This document shows positions 12,533 through 24,084 of a DNA stretch of 64,000 nucleotides, piece after piece (the stretch's first letter is position 1; the number at the start of each line of letters is the position of its first letter). Made by a program: the position numbers and the translations under genes. The notes beneath the pieces are model-generated. The model saw only the letters and a list, made by a program, of their open reading frames with translations, made no database searches and was not told where the DNA came from. The DNA lies in contig NZ_JWHL01000001.1 in the NCBI RefSeq assembly GCF_018132105.1, forward strand, positions 1 through 64,000, written 5' to 3'. This stretch comes from Methanocalculus chunghsingensis (GTDB lineage Archaea; Halobacteriota; Methanomicrobia; Methanomicrobiales; Methanocorpusculaceae).

Positions 12533-13258
12533 ATGGAGAAGATAATCGTCTCCTTTACATGCATAGATGATGAGTCACCCCGCCTGCGTGAACGTGTCAT
12601 CGCCCTTTTTGTCAACGGACGGTATGCAGCAACACCGATCATCATCCCCGACTCTGTCGAGGAGTTTGTCATCGGGCATCTCTTCTCAGAAGAGATCATC
12701 AGAACTCTGAAGGATATCGAATCCATCAGGGTTGAGGAGAACCGGGTCAGCGTCCTGACGACCGATCCCTTCAGGATTACCGGCAGAAGAAAGACAGTTC
12801 TCTCCGGATGTGGGGGGAGTACATCCTATATCGATCTCTCAAAACTTCCTTCGATCCAATCCGGGCTCTCCCTCTCTCTCTCTGATATTTCTTCTGCTCT
12901 GATGGACTGTTCCACTGATACCCCGTTTCCTGCCGGGGCATTCCTCTGTGGTAAAGATGGGGTGATTATTCGATCGGAGGACCTTGAGATCCTCCATGCG
13001 GTTGATCGTGTTATCGGTTCCGGGTTAAAGGCAGATATCACCTTCTCCGAGACGTTCCTCATCATATCCGGCATGATCTCTTCAGAGCTAGTACGTCGGA
13101 GTCTCCTTGCAGGCATTCCGATTCTTCTTGGACGATCTGCACCAACGGATCTTGCTGTTCGTATTGCAGGGGAGATGAATCTCACGCTCGGTACGTTCTC
13201 TTCAGATGGTGCCTTGGTCCTCTATACTCATCCGGAGAGGATCAGCGTCCCTGGTTGA
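12533..13258 (+). CDS. fdhD: FdhD-family formate dehydrogenase accessory protein
   Basis: 241 residues. It has the FdhD text FVIGHLFSEEII, SGCGGS (Cys93), HAVDRVIGSGL (form of HNAxDKxxG) and GIPILLGRSAPTDLAVRIA. FdhD takes sulfur from a cysteine desulfurase and passes it to the Mo/W cofactor of formate dehydrogenase. Most family members carry a CxxC-type loop; here only the first Cys is present (C-G-G). Formate use would fit a Methanomicrobiales methanogen, although no fdhAB is in view. Its 3' end overlaps by 17 bases, on the opposite strand, a gene that encodes a cysteine desulfurase domain. Confidence 0.85.
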   Translation: MEKIIVSFTCIDDESPRLRERVIALFVNGRYAATPIIIPDSVEEFVIGHLFSEEIIRTLKDIESIRVEENRVSVLTTDPFRITGRRKTVLSGCGGSTSYIDLSKLPSIQSGLSLSLSDISSALMDCSTDTPFPAGAFLCGKDGVIIRSEDLEILHAVDRVIGSGLKADITFSETFLIISGMISSELVRRSLLAGIPILLGRSAPTDLAVRIAGEMNLTLGTFSSDGALVLYTHPERISVPG

Positions 13259-15857
13259 TCTCCTTGATAGCCGCTATCAGGAGATCAACCTCGTTCTCTG
13301 TTGTGTACAGTCCGATACTCGCCCTGACAGTACCTTCAGGGAGTCCGAGTCTCTCCATCAGCGGCTGGCAGCAGTGGTACCCTGAACGGACCAGGATCTC
13401 GGCATCGGCATCGAGCCGCTCTGCAACCTCATGGGGATGAAGCCCGTCGATGGTAAATGAGACGACTCCGATGCGATTTTCTGGCTCTGCTGGTGCATAG
13501 ATAGTAACCCCTTTGAATCTTGAAAGGCCATCTATCAGGCGTGTTGTGAGTTCTTCCTCATGTTGCCTGATCGCCTCCATCCCGATCTCTTCGAGATAGT
13601 CGACAGCCACACCAAGTCCGATTCCACCTGCGATATTCGGGGTTCCGGCTTCGTAACGGCCATATCCCTCGACAGACTGGTAGCCATCCTGTGAGACTGA
13701 CTCGACCATTCCTCCACCCAGAATGAGAGGGTTGATATTCTGCTCCTTCATCCAGAGGATACCGGTTCCTGTTGGTCCAAGCATCTTGTGACCTGAGAAA
13801 CAGCAGAAGTCACAATCGATCTCCTGGAGACTGAATGGAATATGCGGCACTGATTGTGCGGCGTCGATGAGAAGGAGCGCCCCGTGGTCTCTGCAGAGCC
13901 GCCCGATCTCCCTGACTGGTGTGATGGTTCCGATAGCATTTGATGCATGGGTTATCGCAACGAGCCTTGCCCCTTTTGAAAGGGTCTCTTTCAGTTCATC
14001 GATATTCAGAGTATAATCGTTATTGATCCCGATAATCTCAAGTTCGACTCCTTTGGCAGCCAGTGCACGCCATGGGAGAAGATTTGAATGGTGTTCCAGG
14101 ATGGTTGTGATGACCCGATCCCCGGGCTGCCAATCCAGCCCTGAAGCGACCATGTTGATGGATTCGGTTGTATTCTTTGTAAAGACCGTTGTCCCTGCCT
14201 CCCCATGGATGAACCGTGCGACCTTCGTATGGGCATGCCAGTATCGCTGTGTTGCTATCTGTGTGAACCTGTGGACTCCACGACCAACATTGGCACGGTA
14301 CCGGTGTTCAAATTCAATAAGAGCATTGACGACCGGCTCAGGAGAGAAGCTCATCGCCGCCGAATCGAGATAGATTGCCTCATGGACGATCGGAAAATCC
14401 CGCCGTATCTTTGCGATCGGATACCCGGGTTCATCAATGGAAACTATTTCCTCCGCTATATCCGGTATCTTTCTCTCCTCAGCAGGAATTGAACGAAGTG
14501 TGTAGTCTTTTTCTACGGTGATTCCGTGATCCCGGCAGAGCTCCCGCATCTTTGGTGGGAGTGCCCTCCATCGCCAGAGGCCATATTCCGTAAAGCCCTT
14601 CGGCATCCCGGTCTTCATCGCCCATCGTTTGAGGAACGAATCCCACTTATCAGTGAGATCCGGATGTATCTTTCTGATAGTCTCGTATTCGCTCTCGAGC
14701 ATCGCAGGGCAGAGATAACAACCGATCCGTTCAAGTCCCATCTCGTAGAGGGGGTTGATTTTTGCATTCTGCCACCAGAGGTAAAGGAAGACTTCAAGTG
14801 CACGCCAGTTTCTGATCGGTGAGACATTCAGCTGGAGTGGGTTTGCAGGATTCTGGCTCGTCTCTTCGAGATCTGCTCTGTTCCATGACTCATACCATCG
14901 ATTTCCCTGAAATGTAACACAAGGTCCTATTTCTGAGAGATATAGTCGGAGCGGGTGGAGTTTGAGGAGCTTACAGCACCACCGGTGATCTTTCCCCGGC
15001 GGTCCGGCTCGTTCGACTGCTGCGAAGAAGTCACCAGCCTTTCTGATGATAGGAACCCCCATGGATTCTATATACGCAATCGTCTCCGGAAGCTCGATCC
15101 CTGTGTCAATGAAGAAAGCTGACGTGACACCGGCTTTCCGGGCGAGATGGAGGACTGCCGTGCTGTCTTTCCCACCCGAGAATGAGACATTTGCGACGGG
15201 ACGATCATGTATATGGGCTTTAATGATCCGCAGGGCATCCCGTTCAAGGAGCTTAAGATGGTACCTGTTCTGTTCGATAACCTTCTTCCAGTCCGGGTTA
15301 TCTGGTGTTACCGGATCCACCTGTCCGAGTTCCTTTACTCGTACATGACCCTCCTTTACAATGCCGGTTCCGTATTTCTTTCTATAGGAGATGATGCATG
15401 TACCCTCGGGAACCGGGGTTTTAAGAGGGAACCGCTTTCCCCCGATACGGACTTTGCTGGTCTGGTCGAGGTGCTCGTCCAGTTGCAGAATACCTTTTTT
15501 TGCAAAGGGGAGGAGGAAGGGAAGAGCCTCAGGTACGATGTCAAGGGAGTATCTTCGTTTCACCGGATCAAAGAGGAGCCATCCGAATCGCCTCCCATGC
15601 ATGATGATGAGATCTGCCCTGTCCGTTCCGCCCGATTTATTCAGGATAACGATCTTTGGAATCGGGATATCACCAAATTGTGCCAAAAGGAGAGCTCTTA
15701 TGAGGTCCATATCCGCTCTGAGTGCAGGCCTGAGATCATAGGGTTCAAGAAGGGGTATACTTCGTCCCTCAGCTCCACATCCACATCTTCGACCGAGGAG
15801 GGGAATATTGCAGGTGTCACACCAGAAAAGGATCTTCTTGACGGCAGGCTCTCTCAT
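13242..15857 (-). CDS. Fusion: zinc ribbon, PUA-like, PP-loop (APS/PAPS-reductase family) and cysteine desulfurase
   Basis: 871 residues in one uninterrupted frame. Residues 10-30: zinc ribbon (Cys13, Cys16, Cys25, Cys27). About 105-180: a PUA-like RNA-binding region. About 200-450: N-type PP-loop domain with SGGKDS at 227-232, Cys294-Cys295, and CxxC at Cys380/Cys383, the CC-X84-CxxC spacing that binds a [4Fe-4S] cluster in APS reductases. The ECGLH catalytic tail of classical (P)APS reductases is absent. About 475-871: SufS-type aminotransferase-V fold with HHSNLLPWR, PLP lysine Lys691 in SGHKMLGPTGTG and catalytic-loop Cys829 in RSGYHCCQP. The combination could load sulfur on its own cysteine and pass it to an adenylated substrate, possibly RNA; that role is inference. 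It lies 53 bases downstream of the nrdD stop and converges with fdhD. Confidence 0.9.
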   Translation of the reverse strand: MREPAVKKILFWCDTCNIPLLGRRCGCGAEGRSIPLLEPYDLRPALRADMDLIRALLLAQFGDIPIPKIVILNKSGGTDRADLIIMHGRRFGWLLFDPVKRRYSLDIVPEALPFLLPFAKKGILQLDEHLDQTSKVRIGGKRFPLKTPVPEGTCIISYRKKYGTGIVKEGHVRVKELGQVDPVTPDNPDWKKVIEQNRYHLKLLERDALRIIKAHIHDRPVANVSFSGGKDSTAVLHLARKAGVTSAFFIDTGIELPETIAYIESMGVPIIRKAGDFFAAVERAGPPGKDHRWCCKLLKLHPLRLYLSEIGPCVTFQGNRWYESWNRADLEETSQNPANPLQLNVSPIRNWRALEVFLYLWWQNAKINPLYEMGLERIGCYLCPAMLESEYETIRKIHPDLTDKWDSFLKRWAMKTGMPKGFTEYGLWRWRALPPKMRELCRDHGITVEKDYTLRSIPAEERKIPDIAEEIVSIDEPGYPIAKIRRDFPIVHEAIYLDSAAMSFSPEPVVNALIEFEHRYRANVGRGVHRFTQIATQRYWHAHTKVARFIHGEAGTTVFTKNTTESINMVASGLDWQPGDRVITTILEHHSNLLPWRALAAKGVELEIIGINNDYTLNIDELKETLSKGARLVAITHASNAIGTITPVREIGRLCRDHGALLLIDAAQSVPHIPFSLQEIDCDFCCFSGHKMLGPTGTGILWMKEQNINPLILGGGMVESVSQDGYQSVEGYGRYEAGTPNIAGGIGLGVAVDYLEEIGMEAIRQHEEELTTRLIDGLSRFKGVTIYAPAEPENRIGVVSFTIDGLHPHEVAERLDADAEILVRSGYHCCQPLMERLGLPEGTVRASIGLYTTENEVDLLIAAIKEINQGR

Positions 15858-15910: not shown

Positions 15911-18094
15911 TCAGATGAGTACCCGTCGATCGGCGGAAGAAATACTTCCAGCAGTCTCGGGTGTTGTATCTGAGTGGTATTCGGTGAACTGCTTGAGTGA
16001 GACGGTCAGATCACGAGTGAAGGCAAAGTATCCAATCTGGGTATTTTTACAGAGGTTCATCGCCATATCCATCAGACCCCGGGGATCAGGTCGTGCCTCT
16101 CCAAGCCAGATGTGGAAGATATTGCCTCCATCAACAATCGGGAAGAAGACATGTTCAAGTTCCATCCTCTTTGTGAGTGTCACCGGTGCAGAGGGGGTGA
16201 CGTGGATACCGTTTGTATAATAGACCGGGAGATCAAGCGTCTTCTTCGCCCTCTCCAGGAGGTTCTTCGTGTCGCCTTTCACAACCTTGAGCGCATATGG
16301 CCGGAAGGTTTCATCAAGGAGATCGGCGACGGCAAATCGCTGTCCTGTCGTCTCTGCCGGGGTTCGGGCGAGTGCAATTGTCATTCCGTGCTCAGCCGAG
16401 AGCTTCTTGGCGTACTGTTCCATCTCGGTCATCGTTCGAACTGCGAAACGGAAGGCTTCCTTCGTCTCATGAAGCTGGGATCCGGTATGATGCTGAATCA
16501 TCTCATTGACGCCCACAATCCCGATGGTATAGACGAGCCCTTCGAGATCGACTGCAACTGATCCACGCTCATGCGTGATGGGATCTTTGGGTCGCTGCAT
16601 TGCAAATGGCATCCTGCCGTTTGCCCGGACAAGTTCCATCCAGCGGCGTTTGATCCGGAATATTGAGACCGCCGAATCCATCATGCCCCGCAGTTCTGCA
16701 AAGAGTGCTTCATCATCATGATCGGCCCGATATGCTGCTCGTGGACAGTTGACTGATATCACCTGCCAGGATCCCATCGAGAAATGTGCCCCATTCTGGA
16801 AATTGAGCTTATCATCGAAGCTGGTGTCATTTGCGGCTGTTGTTGAGAACTGATATGCACAGCACTGGTAGCAGGATATTCCCTCACCTGCCCCACGGTA
16901 CTCCGGGAGCTGGTTATCATAGTAGGGTGTTCCGAACTTCGAGGCGAGTTCGAAGGTCATCAGATAGAGTTCCCGGTATGTCGGGATATCCTGATGGTCG
17001 CGGTTGAAATCCTCGTCTTCATCGATGAAATCGGGCTCGATACTGATCTCAGGTTTTGGGAAGTTGAAGGGCTTCCCCCAGTCATCCCCTTCAAGCATCA
17101 CTTCCATAAGCGTAGCAAAGAGGAGCCGTACCTCTCGTTCAAATTCCCCATAGGTCCGTAGCGGCGCCTGCTCCCCGTTCCAGACTTTTCCTTTGAAGAC
17201 GATTGGCTTGTCACGCCAGAGTTTTGGAACACCTGGTGAGAGCTGAACCGATGAAAAGACCACCTGGCCGCCACGGGCGACCATCATCTGGGTCATCTCG
17301 TAGACGAACATCTGCATCAGTTGTTTGATCTCGGTCTTATTCATCCCCTCGACATAGGGTGCGAGGAAGGTGAGGAAGTTGTAGTATCCCTGACCCCCGG
17401 CAAAGTTTGTCTGAGCAGATCCAAGGGCTTTGACGGCATGCAGAACGGCAACCTCCGGGCGTTTCGCAGGACCTGCAACGCTTGCTTTGGTCCCGTTTCC
17501 ATCCGGCATCAGGCCATAGTAGAAGAAGTAGCGGAGGTCCCAATCCTGGCAAAATGGTCTGCTCCCAAAATATTCCAGGTCATGGATGTGCATATCTCCT
17601 GTGAGGTGAAGATCGGCCAACTCCGGAGGGAGCTGGAGGAGATACTGCTCCTTACTGATCTTGTCAGCCTTCTTCTTATGCGAAGTTTCGGCATTCTCCT
17701 GAAGATTGGAGTTATCCTTGGACTCAAACCCTCTGCCGACATCGATCAGGTGCGCATCAAAAACAGGAGTTCCGACCCGTGTGCAGACGTTCCGGTAGTC
17801 GACCAGCCCCTCTTCGAGGAGGGTCATGTTCATGATCTCACGGATAAGAGGGCCTGAGAGAAAGGTGAGTCCAAGCTTTTTTATTCTGTTTTCAACTTCA
17901 AGTGCAATCCGCTCGGCGAGCTCGCGCTCCGCCCCTTCCCTCCCATAAAAGGTCTGGACAAGCCGTGTCTCCTGAAGGATTTGGTTCTCGATTTTTGTCC
18001 GGTCCCAGTCCATCATGTGGCCAAACGAGGTCCTGACCTTCGGCATAGCGGGCCGAAATGCTCCGTCGAGGGTCGACTGGCGTGTATCTTTCAT
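15911..18094 (-). CDS. nrdD: Anaerobic (class III) ribonucleoside-triphosphate reductase lacking the glycyl-radical tail
   Basis: 727 residues from the ATG at 18094, chosen because GGTGA lies just before it and overlaps the nrdH stop; an ATG at 18145 would overlap nrdH by 44 bases. The NrdD barrel is intact: HIHDLEYFGSRPFCQDWD (Cys182), the GSAQTNFAGGQG segment (about 225-236), GEGISCYQCCAYQ (Cys408, Cys411, Cys412), and NLCKNTQIGYFAFTRDLT near the end. Family members continue with a zinc ribbon and an RVxGY glycyl-radical motif; here the frame stops after about 34 further residues with no Cys and no such motif, and neither other forward frame of this strand supplies one before the next gene. 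No nrdG activase is in the window. The product as encoded should not be able to form a glycyl radical. Confidence 0.88.
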   Translation of the reverse strand: MKDTRQSTLDGAFRPAMPKVRTSFGHMMDWDRTKIENQILQETRLVQTFYGREGAERELAERIALEVENRIKKLGLTFLSGPLIREIMNMTLLEEGLVDYRNVCTRVGTPVFDAHLIDVGRGFESKDNSNLQENAETSHKKKADKISKEQYLLQLPPELADLHLTGDMHIHDLEYFGSRPFCQDWDLRYFFYYGLMPDGNGTKASVAGPAKRPEVAVLHAVKALGSAQTNFAGGQGYYNFLTFLAPYVEGMNKTEIKQLMQMFVYEMTQMMVARGGQVVFSSVQLSPGVPKLWRDKPIVFKGKVWNGEQAPLRTYGEFEREVRLLFATLMEVMLEGDDWGKPFNFPKPEISIEPDFIDEDEDFNRDHQDIPTYRELYLMTFELASKFGTPYYDNQLPEYRGAGEGISCYQCCAYQFSTTAANDTSFDDKLNFQNGAHFSMGSWQVISVNCPRAAYRADHDDEALFAELRGMMDSAVSIFRIKRRWMELVRANGRMPFAMQRPKDPITHERGSVAVDLEGLVYTIGIVGVNEMIQHHTGSQLHETKEAFRFAVRTMTEMEQYAKKLSAEHGMTIALARTPAETTGQRFAVADLLDETFRPYALKVVKGDTKNLLERAKKTLDLPVYYTNGIHVTPSAPVTLTKRMELEHVFFPIVDGGNIFHIWLGEARPDPRGLMDMAMNLCKNTQIGYFAFTRDLTVSLKQFTEYHSDTTPETAGSISSADRRVLI

Positions 18095-18101
18095 TCGGCC
18101 T

Positions 18102-18365
18102 TCACCGTTTACATAATTCTTCGACAGAGTTCTGTACCTCTCCATGTGCGAAGATTTCTTTTGAAGTGAGATACTCTTCGTCTATCTGGAGGACAGGTGC
18201 TTCCATCACAAAGATACCGTTCATCCGGAGATCGGTCAGTGCTTCGGGATCATCGAGGCTTCGTTCTGTATACATAATCTCCTTCTTCTGGAGGTAGCTC
18301 TTGAGTATTTCACAATTTGGACAGACTTCGAGTGAATAGACGATGATATTTTTACTATCTGACAT
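18102..18365 (-). CDS. nrdH: Glutaredoxin-like (NrdH-type) thiol protein
   Basis: 87 residues with a thioredoxin-fold layout: NIIVYSLEVCPNCEILKSYL (redox motif CPNC), then EAPVLQIDEEY (cis-proline strand) and a C-terminal helix. Located directly upstream of nrdD, 7 bases apart. Class III reductases of Methanosarcina type are known to use an NrdH-like protein and ferredoxin-disulfide reductase rather than formate as electron donor, so this is probably the reductant of the adjacent reductase. Confidence 0.85.
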   Translation of the reverse strand: MSDSKNIIVYSLEVCPNCEILKSYLQKKEIMYTERSLDDPEALTDLRMNGIFVMEAPVLQIDEEYLTSKEIFAHGEVQNSVEELCKR

Positions 18366-20867: not shown

Positions 20868-21725
20868 CTATCCGAATGTATGAAGGGTTGCTGCAATGAA
20901 GACAAGTCCGCCGAGTGTTGTATTGATTGCCGGGAGATACCAGTATAGTATCTTAATGTCAACGTCTCTCTTCAGCAGCAACAGGAGAGGAATTGCAGGG
21001 TATATCAGTACAAGGAGGCTTGCCGGGTGTATTCCTGAAGCAAATATGACAATTATGGAGAGGCTCGCCCAGAAGAGGAGACAGAGGAGAAGTGATGGCC
21101 TCTCACTCAATACAACTGCTGTTGTTTGCAGACCTGCTTTTTTATCATACCCGATATCCGGGATGGCGGAAAAGAGATGCATGGCGGCTATATGGAAAAA
21201 CCCAGCAAGAATAAGGAACCATGGTGGCAGATACCCTGACGCAAGGTAATAGCCGAATATCCCTGGCATGATATAAAGCATGTTTGAAGCAAAATCGAGA
21301 CCTGGCAGCTCTTTAAAGCGCAGGGGTGGGGCGCTATAGAAGAATGAGAGGAAGAGAAAGATGGAGAAGATCACCCGTTCTGTCCAGTCTGCCTGGGTGG
21401 CAAGGAGGATGAAACTGATGCCTGCAACGAGGGTGAGGAGGAAGAAGAGACCCTTTTGATCCTTCTTTTGCCATCGATACTCCTGTACATCTTTTTTAGG
21501 GTTATTTTTGTCCGTCTCCTGATCAAAATAATCATTGACGCCATAAATGAAGATATTTGCGGGGATGAAGAAGTAGAAGAGATAGATCATATATTCTGGC
21601 CGAAGAAATGCCTCCCAGGATGCCATCCCGAGGGCAAATCCGACAACATAGGTTCCACCAGTATATATCCAGAATCGTACTCTGGAGATGCGAAATGCAA
21701 GAGAGAGAAGGTTCTCAGACATCAC
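20868..21725 (-). CDS. lyeJ: UbiA-family prenyltransferase, probable lycopene elongase
   Basis: 285 residues, eight to nine hydrophobic segments, with the Asp-rich UbiA motif NDYFDQETDKNNPKK (about 63-77) and the second motif SAIPDIGYDKKAGLQTTA. Its closest functional match by context is LyeJ, which adds two C5 units to lycopene and is the committed step to C50 carotenoids in haloarchaea. It is the last gene of the run cruF-crtI-crtB-lyeJ and overlaps crtB by four bases. The lycopene elongase name rests mainly on this neighbourhood. Confidence 0.82.
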   Translation of the reverse strand: MMSENLLSLAFRISRVRFWIYTGGTYVVGFALGMASWEAFLRPEYMIYLFYFFIPANIFIYGVNDYFDQETDKNNPKKDVQEYRWQKKDQKGLFFLLTLVAGISFILLATQADWTERVIFSIFLFLSFFYSAPPLRFKELPGLDFASNMLYIMPGIFGYYLASGYLPPWFLILAGFFHIAAMHLFSAIPDIGYDKKAGLQTTAVVLSERPSLLLCLLFWASLSIIVIFASGIHPASLLVLIYPAIPLLLLLKRDVDIKILYWYLPAINTTLGGLVFIAATLHTFG

Positions 21726-22600
21726 TCTTCACTCTTGCGGGAGCAAAGCCATGGAGCGGTTCCACAGGCTCTTCTGGAGGATATTGCAATGGTATTTCCA
21801 AGGGCTGTTGCGACGATCCGTGGAATTGAGGGCTTCACCTTTCGTTCATAGACGATTGAGGGACGCGTCTGAATTACACGGGCAGTCCAGGTATACATAT
21901 CGGATGCCGTCTTCACCGGAATAAGAGATCGGGCTGGAATTGAAGAAAATCCTTTCTCTGCCTCTTCCTGCCATATCTCATACCTCTCAATCTGTCTTTG
22001 CAGGAATGCGTCGAATGCCTCAGGATTGCGCCGTATATGATCCTCATCGAGGCTCGCAAGCCCAAACTGACTGAGTTCCTCCACCGGGAAATAGAGCCTT
22101 CCCAATCTTAGATCTTCGGGGATATCCCTGATAAAATTGATATATTGCATTGCTCTTCCAAGCAGGCGGGCTGCATGATCTGCTCTCTCCGGGAGTCTGA
22201 GGATACGTGCCATCATCAGGCCGACAACCTCGGATGATCCGTACAGGTATCCGAGGAGATCCTCCTCTGTTTCATAGTGGCTGACAGTAATATCCATCTC
22301 CATGGATCTGAGGAAGGCATCAACCCACCCGGGTTCAAAAGAGAGGCGCAGAGCCAGATCTGCAAACCCGTCGATGACCACATTCCCGGTTATCTCACCA
22401 GATGCCGCCCTCTCATAGGTATCAACGAATGAATAAAACGCCTCAGTCTCCTGGGGGATGGCATCAACATAATCATCTGCCACACGGACGAAGCTGTAGA
22501 GGATGAAGACATCTCTTCTAATCTCGCGGGGAAAGAAGAGTGTACTGTAGAAGTACGTCCTGCTTCCACCATAGAATATCGATAATAATGTCGTATCCAT
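21722..22600 (-). CDS. crtB: Phytoene synthase (squalene/phytoene synthase family)
   Basis: 292 residues. It has the two Asp-rich substrate-binding motifs, VADDYVDAIPQE (about 41-52) and NFIRDIPED (about 153-161), plus the GSRTYFYSTLFFP start typical of phytoene synthases. It condenses two geranylgeranyl diphosphates to phytoene. It sits between crtI (11 bases upstream) and lyeJ (overlapping). Confidence 0.9.
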   Translation of the reverse strand: MDTTLLSIFYGGSRTYFYSTLFFPREIRRDVFILYSFVRVADDYVDAIPQETEAFYSFVDTYERAASGEITGNVVIDGFADLALRLSFEPGWVDAFLRSMEMDITVSHYETEEDLLGYLYGSSEVVGLMMARILRLPERADHAARLLGRAMQYINFIRDIPEDLRLGRLYFPVEELSQFGLASLDEDHIRRNPEAFDAFLQRQIERYEIWQEEAEKGFSSIPARSLIPVKTASDMYTWTARVIQTRPSIVYERKVKPSIPRIVATALGNTIAISSRRACGTAPWLCSRKSEE

Positions 22601-22611
22601 TCATATCCCCG

Positions 22612-24084
22612 CTATCTCTTTCGTCCGGCGATCTCATCGGCAATGATCTGCGACGATATCAGCGTCATCGGAACGCCGATCCCGGGATGGGTATACTGGC
22701 CGGTATAGTAGAGATTCTCAACCTTCCTGCTCTGGTGTGCCGGCCGCCAGAAAGCTGTCTGGAAGAGGGAGTGTGTCAGCCCAAGTGCTGTTCCACGGTA
22801 TGCATTGTATCGCTCCTCAAAGTCGCCCAATGCAAAAATCCTCTTCGTTACGACTGCATCTCTGATGCTCTCCCCGGTTGTTGATTCGATGTGATCGATG
22901 ATCTGGTTGTAGAATCTCTCCCGAATCTCCGGCGAGTCCGGGATGCCGGGTGCAAGAGGGACAAGGATGAAGAGTGCCTCTCCATCTTCAGGGGCAGCCG
23001 ATGCATCGGTCTTTGACGGGACATTCACATAGTATGACGGACTCTCGGGCCATTCAGCCTGTGCAGGGTCGAAGATGCGGTGGAAGTTCTCCTCCCAGTC
23101 CTTATCGAGGAAGAGGGTGTGATGCGCAAGAGACTCTGCTTTCTTGTTAATACCAAGATAGACGACAAATGCGGACGGTGCTATCTCCCGCTTCTTCCAG
23201 TACTTCTCCGGATAGGTGGCATATTGTGGTTCAAGCAGGGCCATCTCAGCATGCGGATAATCCGCATTGACGATGACGATATCTGCTTCATATGTATCGT
23301 TTGAGGTGGTAACACCGGTTGTCACACCGTCGCTGACATCTATCGAGGTGACGGGTTCATTGAAACGGAATGAGGCACCGTTCTGTCTGGCGAGATCATA
23401 GATCCCTTCAACAACCTTCCGCATACCACCATCCGGGTACCATACCCCCATGCTCAGATCAATATAGGACATCATATGGTAGAATGCAGGCGTATTCTTC
23501 GGCGAGCTGCCGAGGAAGCCGACAGAATATTGTACGATCCTGCGTGCTTCATCGCTTGAAAAACGTTTTTTAACGAAGGAATCGAGGCTTTCGAAGATAT
23601 GAAATTTTCTCCCTTCCAGGATCATATGGGGATCGAACATATCAAAGATGGATCGATAGTCCCGGTACAACATCTGCCCAATTGCGAGGTCATACTTCTC
23701 TTTTCCCTCATTGAGGTATCTTCTGAGTTTCTCTCCTCCATCTTTTTCGAAGGTATCAAATAAGGCGAGGTTTTTTGACACATCTGATGCGATGTCGATG
23801 GTCGGCCCTTCTTCGAAGTAAATCCTGTAGGACGGATCGAGGCGGGCCAGATCATAGAAATCCTCTGGCTTCTTCCCAAACTCAGCGAAGAACTTCTCAT
23901 AGACATCCGGCATCAGATACCATGACGGTCCCATGTCGAATGCATACCTCCCGTCTCTATGAGTACCTGCCCTGCCACCCGGCTGTTCATTCTTCTCTAT
24001 GACGGTGACATCAAACCCCTCTTTGGCAAGCAATGCAGCCGCCGAAAGCCCTCCAAATCCTGCTCCAACAATAATCAGTTTCAT
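22612..24084 (-). CDS. crtI: Phytoene desaturase (CrtI family)
   Basis: 490 residues. N-terminal dinucleotide fold IIVGAGFGGLSAAALLAKEG with IEKNEQPGGRAGT, then FDMGPSWYLMPDVYE, and the C-terminal FAD motif YTGQYTHPGIGVPMTLISSQ, all standard for CrtI. It converts phytoene toward lycopene. It has its own promoter (TATA at 24127-24135) and a GGAG ribosome site just before the ATG at 24084. Confidence 0.93.
   Translation of the reverse strand: MKLIIVGAGFGGLSAAALLAKEGFDVTVIEKNEQPGGRAGTHRDGRYAFDMGPSWYLMPDVYEKFFAEFGKKPEDFYDLARLDPSYRIYFEEGPTIDIASDVSKNLALFDTFEKDGGEKLRRYLNEGKEKYDLAIGQMLYRDYRSIFDMFDPHMILEGRKFHIFESLDSFVKKRFSSDEARRIVQYSVGFLGSSPKNTPAFYHMMSYIDLSMGVWYPDGGMRKVVEGIYDLARQNGASFRFNEPVTSIDVSDGVTTGVTTSNDTYEADIVIVNADYPHAEMALLEPQYATYPEKYWKKREIAPSAFVVYLGINKKAESLAHHTLFLDKDWEENFHRIFDPAQAEWPESPSYYVNVPSKTDASAAPEDGEALFILVPLAPGIPDSPEIRERFYNQIIDHIESTTGESIRDAVVTKRIFALGDFEERYNAYRGTALGLTHSLFQTAFWRPAHQSRKVENLYYTGQYTHPGIGVPMTLISSQIIADEIAGRKR

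What the first reader, a model, noticed from the sequence alone, without database searches (positions are those of the whole stretch)
13242..15857. One protein with RNA-binding-like region, PP-loop and cysteine desulfurase: a possible self-contained sulfur-transfer enzyme
In one unbroken 871-codon frame I see a zinc ribbon, a PUA-like region, a PP-loop domain (SGGKDS at 227-232 and a CC-X84-CxxC cluster site) and a SufS-type cysteine desulfurase (Lys691, Cys829). PP-loop enzymes of this type include APS/PAPS reductases and thiolation enzymes (ThiI, TtuA and DndC families); cysteine desulfurases donate sulfur to such enzymes. The ECGLH tail used by true (P)APS reductases is missing. The desulfurase may take its place as sulfur source, as DndA does for DndC. 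The PUA-like part points to RNA as acceptor, but that is inference. The nearby fdhD, which also needs desulfurase sulfur, offers a second possible partner.
Basis: partly seen in the sequence, partly recalled or inferred. Interest (0 to 1): 0.72.

Follow-up and report, generated by a model that had tools for sequence, protein, structure and literature searches.

The report
PP-loop enzyme fused to FdhD's desulfurase
A methanogen enzyme that joins an ATP-using, iron-sulfur PP-loop half to a cysteine desulfurase half is real and widespread in one archaeal order; the desulfurase half most likely supplies sulfur to the maturation protein of formate dehydrogenase rather than mainly to RNA, while the PP-loop half has an older job that is still unknown.

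Summary
The 871-aa gene (minus strand, 15857-13242) is real. It fuses a zinc-ribbon/PP-loop half (SGGKDS; four-Cys CC...CxxC) to a SufS-type cysteine desulfurase (CD). About 90 of 150 Methanomicrobiales genomes have it, including closed ones; none was found in the rest of the phylum. A 2024 survey (PMC11237513) had already listed it as a 'CysH-SufS' fusion.

The PUA/RNA argument fails: the fusions show no PUA by profile (0 of 8), while the paralogue in the same genome does. The best-supported partner is FdhD. The fused CD nests in a CD lineage otherwise encoded beside fdhD. FdhD with the cysteine loop [SA]GCGG was found in 51 of 52 genomes that have such a CD and whose loops were read, and in 0 of 20 without. 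fdhD lies within 1 kb of the fusion in 32 of 52 genomes. The PP-loop half persists where the CD is missing (60 of 60 genomes). Both fusions with a dead CD have a standalone CD beside Cys-FdhD.

Best reading: a two-function fusion. The CD donates sulfur to FdhD for the Mo/W cofactor of formate dehydrogenase. The PP-loop half is a separate ATP-dependent enzyme with unknown acceptor, possibly sharing that CD. No biochemistry exists.

The parts
13242..15857 (-). fusion gene, 871 aa: zinc ribbon - region in PUA position - PP-loop - linker - SufS-type cysteine desulfurase
15750..15836 (-). zinc ribbon, residues 8-36 (C13, C16, C25, C27)
   Evidence: each Cys kept in 62 of 64 fusion rows and in all rows of the other PP-loop classes
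15312..15506 (-). residues 118-182, in the position of PUA in the paralogues but not recognisable as PUA
14508..15290 (-). PP-loop / PAPS-reductase-like domain, residues 190-450
   Evidence: PF01507 5e-34
15162..15179 (-). PP-loop motif SGGKDS, residues 227-232
   Evidence: invariant in 120 sequences
14973..14978 (-). C294-C295, predicted cluster ligands
14709..14720 (-). C380-x-x-C383, predicted cluster ligands
14412..14504 (-). variable linker, about residues 452-482 (23-137 residues in relatives)
13245..14411 (-). SufS-type cysteine desulfurase half, residues 483-871
   Evidence: PF00266 6e-121; PDB sequence match 5b7s 1.6e-105
13785..13787 (-). Lys691, predicted PLP lysine
   Evidence: 63 of 64 fusion rows
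13371..13373 (-). Cys829, predicted persulfide cysteine (RSGYHC829C)
   Evidence: 62 of 64 fusion rows
12533..13258 (+). fdhD, convergent, overlapping the fusion's 3' end by 17 bases; predicted persulfide acceptor of the desulfurase half
   Evidence: PF02634 2e-39; adjacency and co-occurrence
12803..12817 (+). SGCGG loop of FdhD (Cys93), in the position of the E. coli Cys121 loop
   Evidence: equivalence to the E. coli loop is by motif, from PMC10609526 and PMC6239281

Best explanation
A two-function fusion. The C-terminal half is an FdhD-partner cysteine desulfurase: it takes sulfur from cysteine onto Cys829 and passes it to the cysteine loop (SGCGG) of the neighbouring FdhD, which sulfurates the Mo/W-bisPGD cofactor of formate dehydrogenase. 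The N-terminal half is an older PP-loop enzyme that binds ATP and probably a four-Cys [4Fe-4S] cluster and most likely activates an unknown acceptor; it works without this desulfurase in many relatives and may use it as a shared source where fused. Shown by computation: domains, conserved catalytic residues, CD ancestry, co-occurrence and adjacency with Cys-loop FdhD. Inferred: persulfide transfer to FdhD, ATP chemistry, the cluster, and any sharing.
For: The fused CD clade (32 rows, 100/97) nests in a 61-row clade (95/93) whose standalone members are mostly encoded next to fdhD; CDs without fdhD fall outside. In 20 loci from other orders fetched with the closest CDs, fdhD lies next to the CD in 16; the [SA]GCGG loop was read in 13 of these and not found by the motif scan in three. 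In 75 genomes at least 95% complete, Cys-loop FdhD was read in 51 of 55 genomes with a fused or standalone CD of this kind; in three of the other four its loop was not read, and one (G029) has none. It occurs in 0 of 20 genomes without. Four genera contain both states (g3, g5, g7, g16). fdhD lies within 1 kb of the fusion in 32 of 52 genomes, downstream convergent, upstream co-directional, upstream divergent or downstream co-directional. In ten genomes fdhA lies on the far side of that fdhD, 2.4-3.6 kb from the fusion; one such locus (L060) reads fdhA-fdhB-fdhD. CD-less relatives nested in the fusion clade (G047, G043, G031) suggest later loss, and G047, G043 and G001 lack Cys-loop FdhD. Both fusions with a dead CD (G002, G121) have a standalone CD beside Cys-loop FdhD, and so does CD-less G031. 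The PP-loop half is present in 60 of 60 genomes, CD or not. Literature: FdhD passes sulfur from IscS to bis-MGD, and M. maripaludis, without CD, has FdhD without the cysteines (PMC10609526).
Against: G029 has the PP-loop gene and an apparently intact CD as neighbours but no Cys-loop FdhD. In 20 of 52 genomes fdhD is not within 1 kb (some on separate contigs). Four genomes (G005, G014, G017, G073) have the fusion and Cys-loop FdhD but no FdhA above 1e-150, so formate dehydrogenase may not be the only client. At least a dozen genomes keep both an intact fusion and a standalone CD. Five genomes have a more distant SufS-like CD and no Cys-loop FdhD. Some Cys-less fdhD genes lie near an IscS-type gene. 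In E. coli the FdhD cysteines stimulate IscS but were not strictly essential (PMC6239281). Genomes are related, so the counts are not independent. The fusion itself suggests that the two halves benefit from being together, which a purely two-job reading does not explain.
Confidence: 0.6

Rival explanations
1. Self-contained thiolation enzyme: the desulfurase passes sulfur within the chain to the PP-loop half, which thiolates an adenylated nucleoside in RNA or a small cofactor.
For: Intact SGGKDS and four Cys in every fusion, intact CD in 62 of 64 rows; PP-loop and CD stay adjacent in G029 without Cys-loop FdhD and in G014:C45; PP-loop thiolases adenylate the nucleoside and can take sulfur from a CD (PMC10067955); B. 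subtilis mnmA and its CD yrvO are neighbours and an engineered MnmA-YrvO fusion works (PMC10219651).
Against: No PUA in the fusions; the PP-loop half is kept without any such CD in many genomes and with a dead CD in G002 and G121; the CD tracks Cys-loop FdhD instead. Four conserved Cys rather than the three of NcsA/TtuA-type thiolases with one free iron site.
Confidence: 0.17
2. An ordinary or fused (P)APS reductase (CysH) of sulfate assimilation, as the family is annotated in PMC11237513.
For: PAPS_reduct domain, CC...CxxC and a conserved Lys299 in the position of the APS reductase motif CCxxRKxxP; Methanosarcinales relatives carry a ferredoxin domain and some sit beside sulfide/dihydroorotate-dehydrogenase-like and gltA-like oxidoreductase genes, which would suit a reductase.
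Against: No ECGLH-like catalytic tail in 120 sequences; the ATP pyrophosphatase motif SGGKDS is invariant, whereas the solved APS reductase matched here has SGAED; score for phosphoadenylyl-sulfate reductase 54 bits against a cut-off of 154.
Confidence: 0.07
3. The PP-loop half also works on the Mo/W cofactor: an ATP-dependent activation or insertion step in cofactor sulfuration, in one chain with the desulfurase.
For: Fusion to an FdhD-partner CD and adjacency to fdhD and fdhA. CD fused to a Moco-binding domain exists in eukaryotic Moco sulfurase (PMC10609526).
Against: The PP-loop half is present in genomes without Cys-loop FdhD, without this CD, in one with no FdhD found (G077), in genomes with no fdhA above threshold (G071, G029), and in Methanosarcinales with a ferredoxin instead.
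Confidence: 0.1

Closest known systems
CysH-SufS fusion of Methanomicrobiales, cluster 536 in 'Fusion/fission protein family identification in Archaea' (PMC11237513)
   Same: Almost certainly the same proteins: PAPS-reductase-like domain fused to a SufS-type CD, only in Methanomicrobiales.
   Different: There it is listed as assimilatory CysH, with fusion/fission order unresolved. Here: ATP motif intact, reductase tail absent, link to Cys-loop FdhD, and a tree with adjacent genes branching near the base, one fusion clade and later CD losses.
FdhD-IscS sulfur relay of E. coli formate dehydrogenase (PMC10609526, PMC6239281)
   Same: CD as sulfur source, FdhD with a cysteine loop, formate dehydrogenase as client.
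   Different: CD is SufS-type, dedicated by genome context, and fused to a PP-loop protein.
NF010366/PRK13795 family (archaeal PAPS-reductase-like 'hypothetical protein')
   Same: Same zinc-ribbon/PP-loop architecture over residues 7-452.
   Different: 376.7 bits against an equivalog cut-off of 745; type B members have a real PUA, and those outside Methanomicrobiales a ferredoxin domain, instead of a CD.
DndA-DndC / SspA-SspD DNA phosphorothioation
   Same: CD plus PP-loop Fe-S protein.
   Different: Separate proteins; the PP-loop half scores 5e-5 over 25 residues to DndC and 6e-12 to SspD.
MnmA-YrvO and ThiI-IscS tRNA thiolation pairs
   Same: PP-loop enzyme served by a CD; the engineered MnmA-YrvO fusion is functional (PMC10219651).
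   Different: Different PP-loop families (own knowledge); no recognisable RNA-binding domain here.
Eukaryotic Moco sulfurase (ABA3/MOCOS)
   Same: CD fused to another domain, cofactor sulfuration (PMC10609526).
   Different: Partner domain binds Moco and is not a PP-loop; target enzyme class differs.

Membership tests
SufS-type cysteine desulfurase | Class V aminotransferase fold and PLP lysine | tested here: met
   PF00266 6e-121; Lys691 in 63 of 64 fusion rows
SufS-type cysteine desulfurase | Catalytic Cys in the RxGxHC motif | tested here: met
   Cys829 in 62 of 64 rows; lost in G121 and G002 only
SufS-type cysteine desulfurase | Curated NCBIfam cut-off TIGR01979 | tested here: not met
   411 bits against 475.1: SufS-like, not a canonical member; the standalone FdhD-linked CDs also fall short
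SufS-type cysteine desulfurase | Desulfurase activity | not testable with these tools
   needs purified protein
(P)APS reductase (CysH) | PAPS_reduct domain and CC...CxxC cluster site | tested here: met
(P)APS reductase (CysH) | C-terminal catalytic ECGLH | tested here: not met
   0 of 120 sequences
(P)APS reductase (CysH) | Curated cut-off NF002537 | tested here: not met
   54 bits against 154
NcsA/TtuA-type tRNA thiolase | [4Fe-4S] held by three Cys with one free iron site (PMC10067955) | tested here: not met
   four conserved Cys, CC...CxxC, in 64 of 64 fusions; the cluster itself was not tested
PUA-PP-loop family (type B, PRK13795-like) | Recognisable PUA domain | tested here: not met
   0 of 8 fusions, against 14 of 14 type B
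PUA-PP-loop family (type B, PRK13795-like) | Zinc ribbon, SGGKDS, four Cys | tested here: met
DndC | Profile match over the whole PP-loop domain | tested here: not met
   5e-5 over 25 residues
FdhD-IscS-like relay (works like) | Cys-loop FdhD genetically linked to the CD | tested here: met
FdhD-IscS-like relay (works like) | Persulfide transfer from CD to FdhD and cofactor sulfuration | not testable with these tools
   needs biochemistry

The most novel reading that the evidence does not exclude
A single-chain sulfur hub: one desulfurase domain feeds two clients, the ATP-dependent PP-loop enzyme in the same chain and FdhD encoded next door, so that formate dehydrogenase maturation and a second, unknown sulfur modification share one physically tethered source in these methanogens.
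Probability: 0.3. Interest if true: 0.7.

Novelty: new variant of a known kind. Interest (0 to 1): 0.5.

Why it matters
How methanogens move sulfur into cofactors and RNA is largely open, because many lack the bacterial machinery. This fusion has been listed as a sulfate-assimilation CysH, which the sequences do not support. The link between Cys-loop FdhD and one desulfurase clade gives a testable rule for which methanogens sulfurate their formate dehydrogenase cofactor from cysteine and which must use another source. The PP-loop half, present in every one of 60 genomes of the order examined, is a conserved enzyme with no known reaction.

Tried and rejected
Assembly artefact: rejected, fusion present in closed genomes. 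PUA by sequence, profile-profile and structure: not found. The structure models are limited because the alignments held only 7-8 sequences (full model pLDDT 62, pTM 0.45; residues 1-215 pLDDT 79), so the negative fold search is weak evidence. PDB sequence searches gave only CD structures and weak CysD/APS reductase hits. Conserved synteny with Methanosarcinaceae: my first guess that the A1 neighbours were the ThrRS locus was wrong; one search shows GrpE, DnaK and PurH. nrdD as a partner: adjacent upstream only in the window's own genus. thiM/thiE-like and nadA-like neighbours: limited to some lineages, not pursued. Third FdhDs in the sister genus g2 first looked like pseudogenes; reading them showed the SGCGG loop intact and stops only at the end of the match. 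The FdhD loop flag counted any Cys in the loop window; the counts used here are for the strict motif [SA]GCGG.
Full report
What is there. The frame runs on the minus strand from 15857 to 13242 and encodes 871 residues. Pfam finds PAPS_reduct at 223-385 (5e-34) and Aminotran_5 at 495-860 (6e-121). In an alignment of 64 fusion rows the PP-loop SGGKDS and the four cysteines 294, 295, 380 and 383 are invariant; Lys691 is kept in 63 and Cys829 in 62. No APS-reductase tail (ECGLH-like) occurs in any of 120 related PP-loop proteins.

Spread. In 150 genomes of the order, about 90 carry the fusion over most of its length, several in single-contig genomes (counted by hand from the listed rows and their open frames). 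Named relatives include Candidatus Methanoculleus thermohydrogenotrophicum and Methanogenium marinum, so the order is Methanomicrobiales (inference from these names). In a sample of 295 genomes of the phylum, the listed full-length matches were all within the order (the weakest matches were not listed). The fusion was already reported as CysH-SufS, Methanomicrobiales only, in PMC11237513.

The PUA question. The own genome holds a paralogue (contig C12, 468 aa, called type B here) with the same layout and a clear PUA (6e-18); the fusion's first 201 residues give no PUA even at E=10. Per class: 14 of 14 type B, 3 of 10 Methanosarcinales type A, 0 of 8 fusions. In the PUA position the fusions have about 70 residues against 84 in type B, mean identity is 0.19 there against 0.38 in the PP-loop region, and hhalign does not link them. 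The region is probably a decayed PUA by position, but it is no evidence for RNA.

PP-loop half. The tree of this half (65 rows) puts the Methanomicrobiales type A proteins in one clade (100/100) with two parts: CD-less A1, and A2 (100/99), which holds the fusions. Near the base of A2 lie G077 (no CD) and G029 and G014:C45 (CD as a separate neighbouring frame; G029 read); G047, G043 and G031, nested among fusions, have no CD. The simplest history is neighbouring genes, then fusion, then several losses of the CD, although some of these branches have low support. Methanosarcinales type A proteins carry a two-cluster ferredoxin instead, and in several Methanosarcinaceae loci the gene follows a sulfide/dihydroorotate-dehydrogenase-like gene and a gltA-like gene. 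A PP-loop half is present in 60 of 60 genomes examined at high completeness. It therefore has a function that does not require this CD.

Desulfurase half. The CD tree (68 rows) places the fused CDs in one clade (100/97) inside a larger clade (95/93) whose standalone members mostly sit beside fdhD; CDs without fdhD (L229 second copy, L230-L232, L274, L275) lie outside. Among 20 loci from other orders chosen as the closest CDs, fdhD was found next to the CD in 16; the [SA]GCGG loop was read in 13 and was not found by the motif scan in L266, L267 and L276. The own genome has such a CD-fdhD pair on contig C20.

FdhD. FdhD proteins of the order fall into a class with a cysteine loop, [SA]GCGG, and classes without it (SSGG, SAGG, TGx). 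In 75 genomes at least 95% complete, 55 have a fused, adjacent or standalone CD of the clade. Cys-loop FdhD was read in 51 of these; in G057, G076 and G084 the relevant FdhD was not read, and G029 has none. None of the 20 genomes without such a CD has it. Fisher's test gives 1e-14, but the genomes are related, so this number is not a probability; four genera contain both states and agree apart from G029. Sixteen more genomes were searched: G121's only FdhD has the Cys loop and lies beside a standalone CD.

Linkage. fdhD lies within 1 kb of the fusion in 32 of 52 genomes. The arrangement differs: convergent downstream (window), co-directional upstream (L045, L064, L077, L078), divergent upstream (L059) and co-directional downstream (L070). 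In ten genomes fdhA lies 2.4-3.6 kb from the fusion on the far side of that fdhD; in the one read in full, L060, the order is fdhA, an F420-type beta-subunit-like frame of 412 aa, fdhD with SGCGG, then the convergent fusion (the beta subunit is named by sight, not by a profile).

Natural mutants. Two fusions have lost the CD's catalytic residues: G121 (Arg824 to Thr, Cys829 to Gly) and G002 (Lys691 to Arg, Arg824 to Ser, Cys829 to Asp), both with an intact PP-loop half. Both genomes have a standalone CD beside Cys-loop FdhD, as does G031, which lacks the CD half. In the trees their CD halves have longer end branches (0.82 and 0.62) than their PP-loop halves (0.37 and 0.25). This fits a CD half whose job can be taken over by the standalone FdhD-partner CD, and a PP-loop half that does not need it.

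Mechanism. In E. coli, FdhD passes sulfur from IscS to bis-MGD; M. maripaludis, which lacks a CD, has FdhD without the loop cysteines (PMC10609526). A later study found the cysteines stimulate IscS but are not strictly essential (PMC6239281). The pattern here fits a CD that serves Cys-loop FdhD. The step is inferred; nothing was measured. For the PP-loop half, SGGKDS points to ATP use, and four cysteines to a fully ligated cluster, unlike the three-cysteine clusters of NcsA-type thiolases (PMC10067955). Its acceptor is unknown.

Why fused. The data do not say. Shared use of sulfur-mobilising proteins by tRNA thiolation and Moco synthesis is known in other organisms (PMC5372717), and an engineered PP-loop-CD fusion works (PMC10219651), so a shared, tethered source is reasonable; G029, where CD and PP-loop gene are neighbours without Cys-loop FdhD, hints that the CD can also serve the PP-loop enzyme.

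Limits. Exceptions are listed under evidence against. Structure prediction was poor because the alignment held only eight sequences. The literature library holds open-access papers only, so earlier mentions elsewhere cannot be excluded.

Noticed in passing
window 13253-13290: A 38-base near-perfect palindrome inside the last codons of the fusion, at the convergent overlap with fdhD; it folds into a long hairpin and may end transcription from both sides. A weaker version is in G054.
   Followed up: partly
window 15911-18145; L054 3385-7062: nrdD upstream of the fusion is 744 aa in the window, but 1225 aa in G006, with an intein-like insert between ...RPFC and CQDWDL; a 1223-aa frame in G012 suggests the same.
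   Followed up: partly
window 20868-24084: UbiA-like prenyltransferase, phytoene/squalene-synthase-like and phytoene-desaturase-like frames in a row (named by sight), suggesting carotenoid-type genes in a methanogen.
   Followed up: no
L178, L179: Genomes of the sister genus (g2) have two FdhD domains in one frame of about 510-526 aa, without the Cys loop.
   Followed up: no
L040 / L057: In G103 the fusion and fdhD sit between purH and grpE-dnaK-dnaJ, the place held by the CD-less A1 gene in other genomes (dnaJ by position only).
   Followed up: partly
L062, L063: thiM- and thiE-like genes follow the fusion in the same direction in some Methanoregulaceae-type genomes; a nadA-like gene in others (named by sight).
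   Followed up: no
L150 6343-9356: A Cys-less fdhD near an IscS-type desulfurase gene with a short frame between; also in L184, L186, L194.
   Followed up: partly
L006 / L152: The type B PUA-PP-loop gene is followed by a hisH-like gene in several archaea (named by sight).
   Followed up: no
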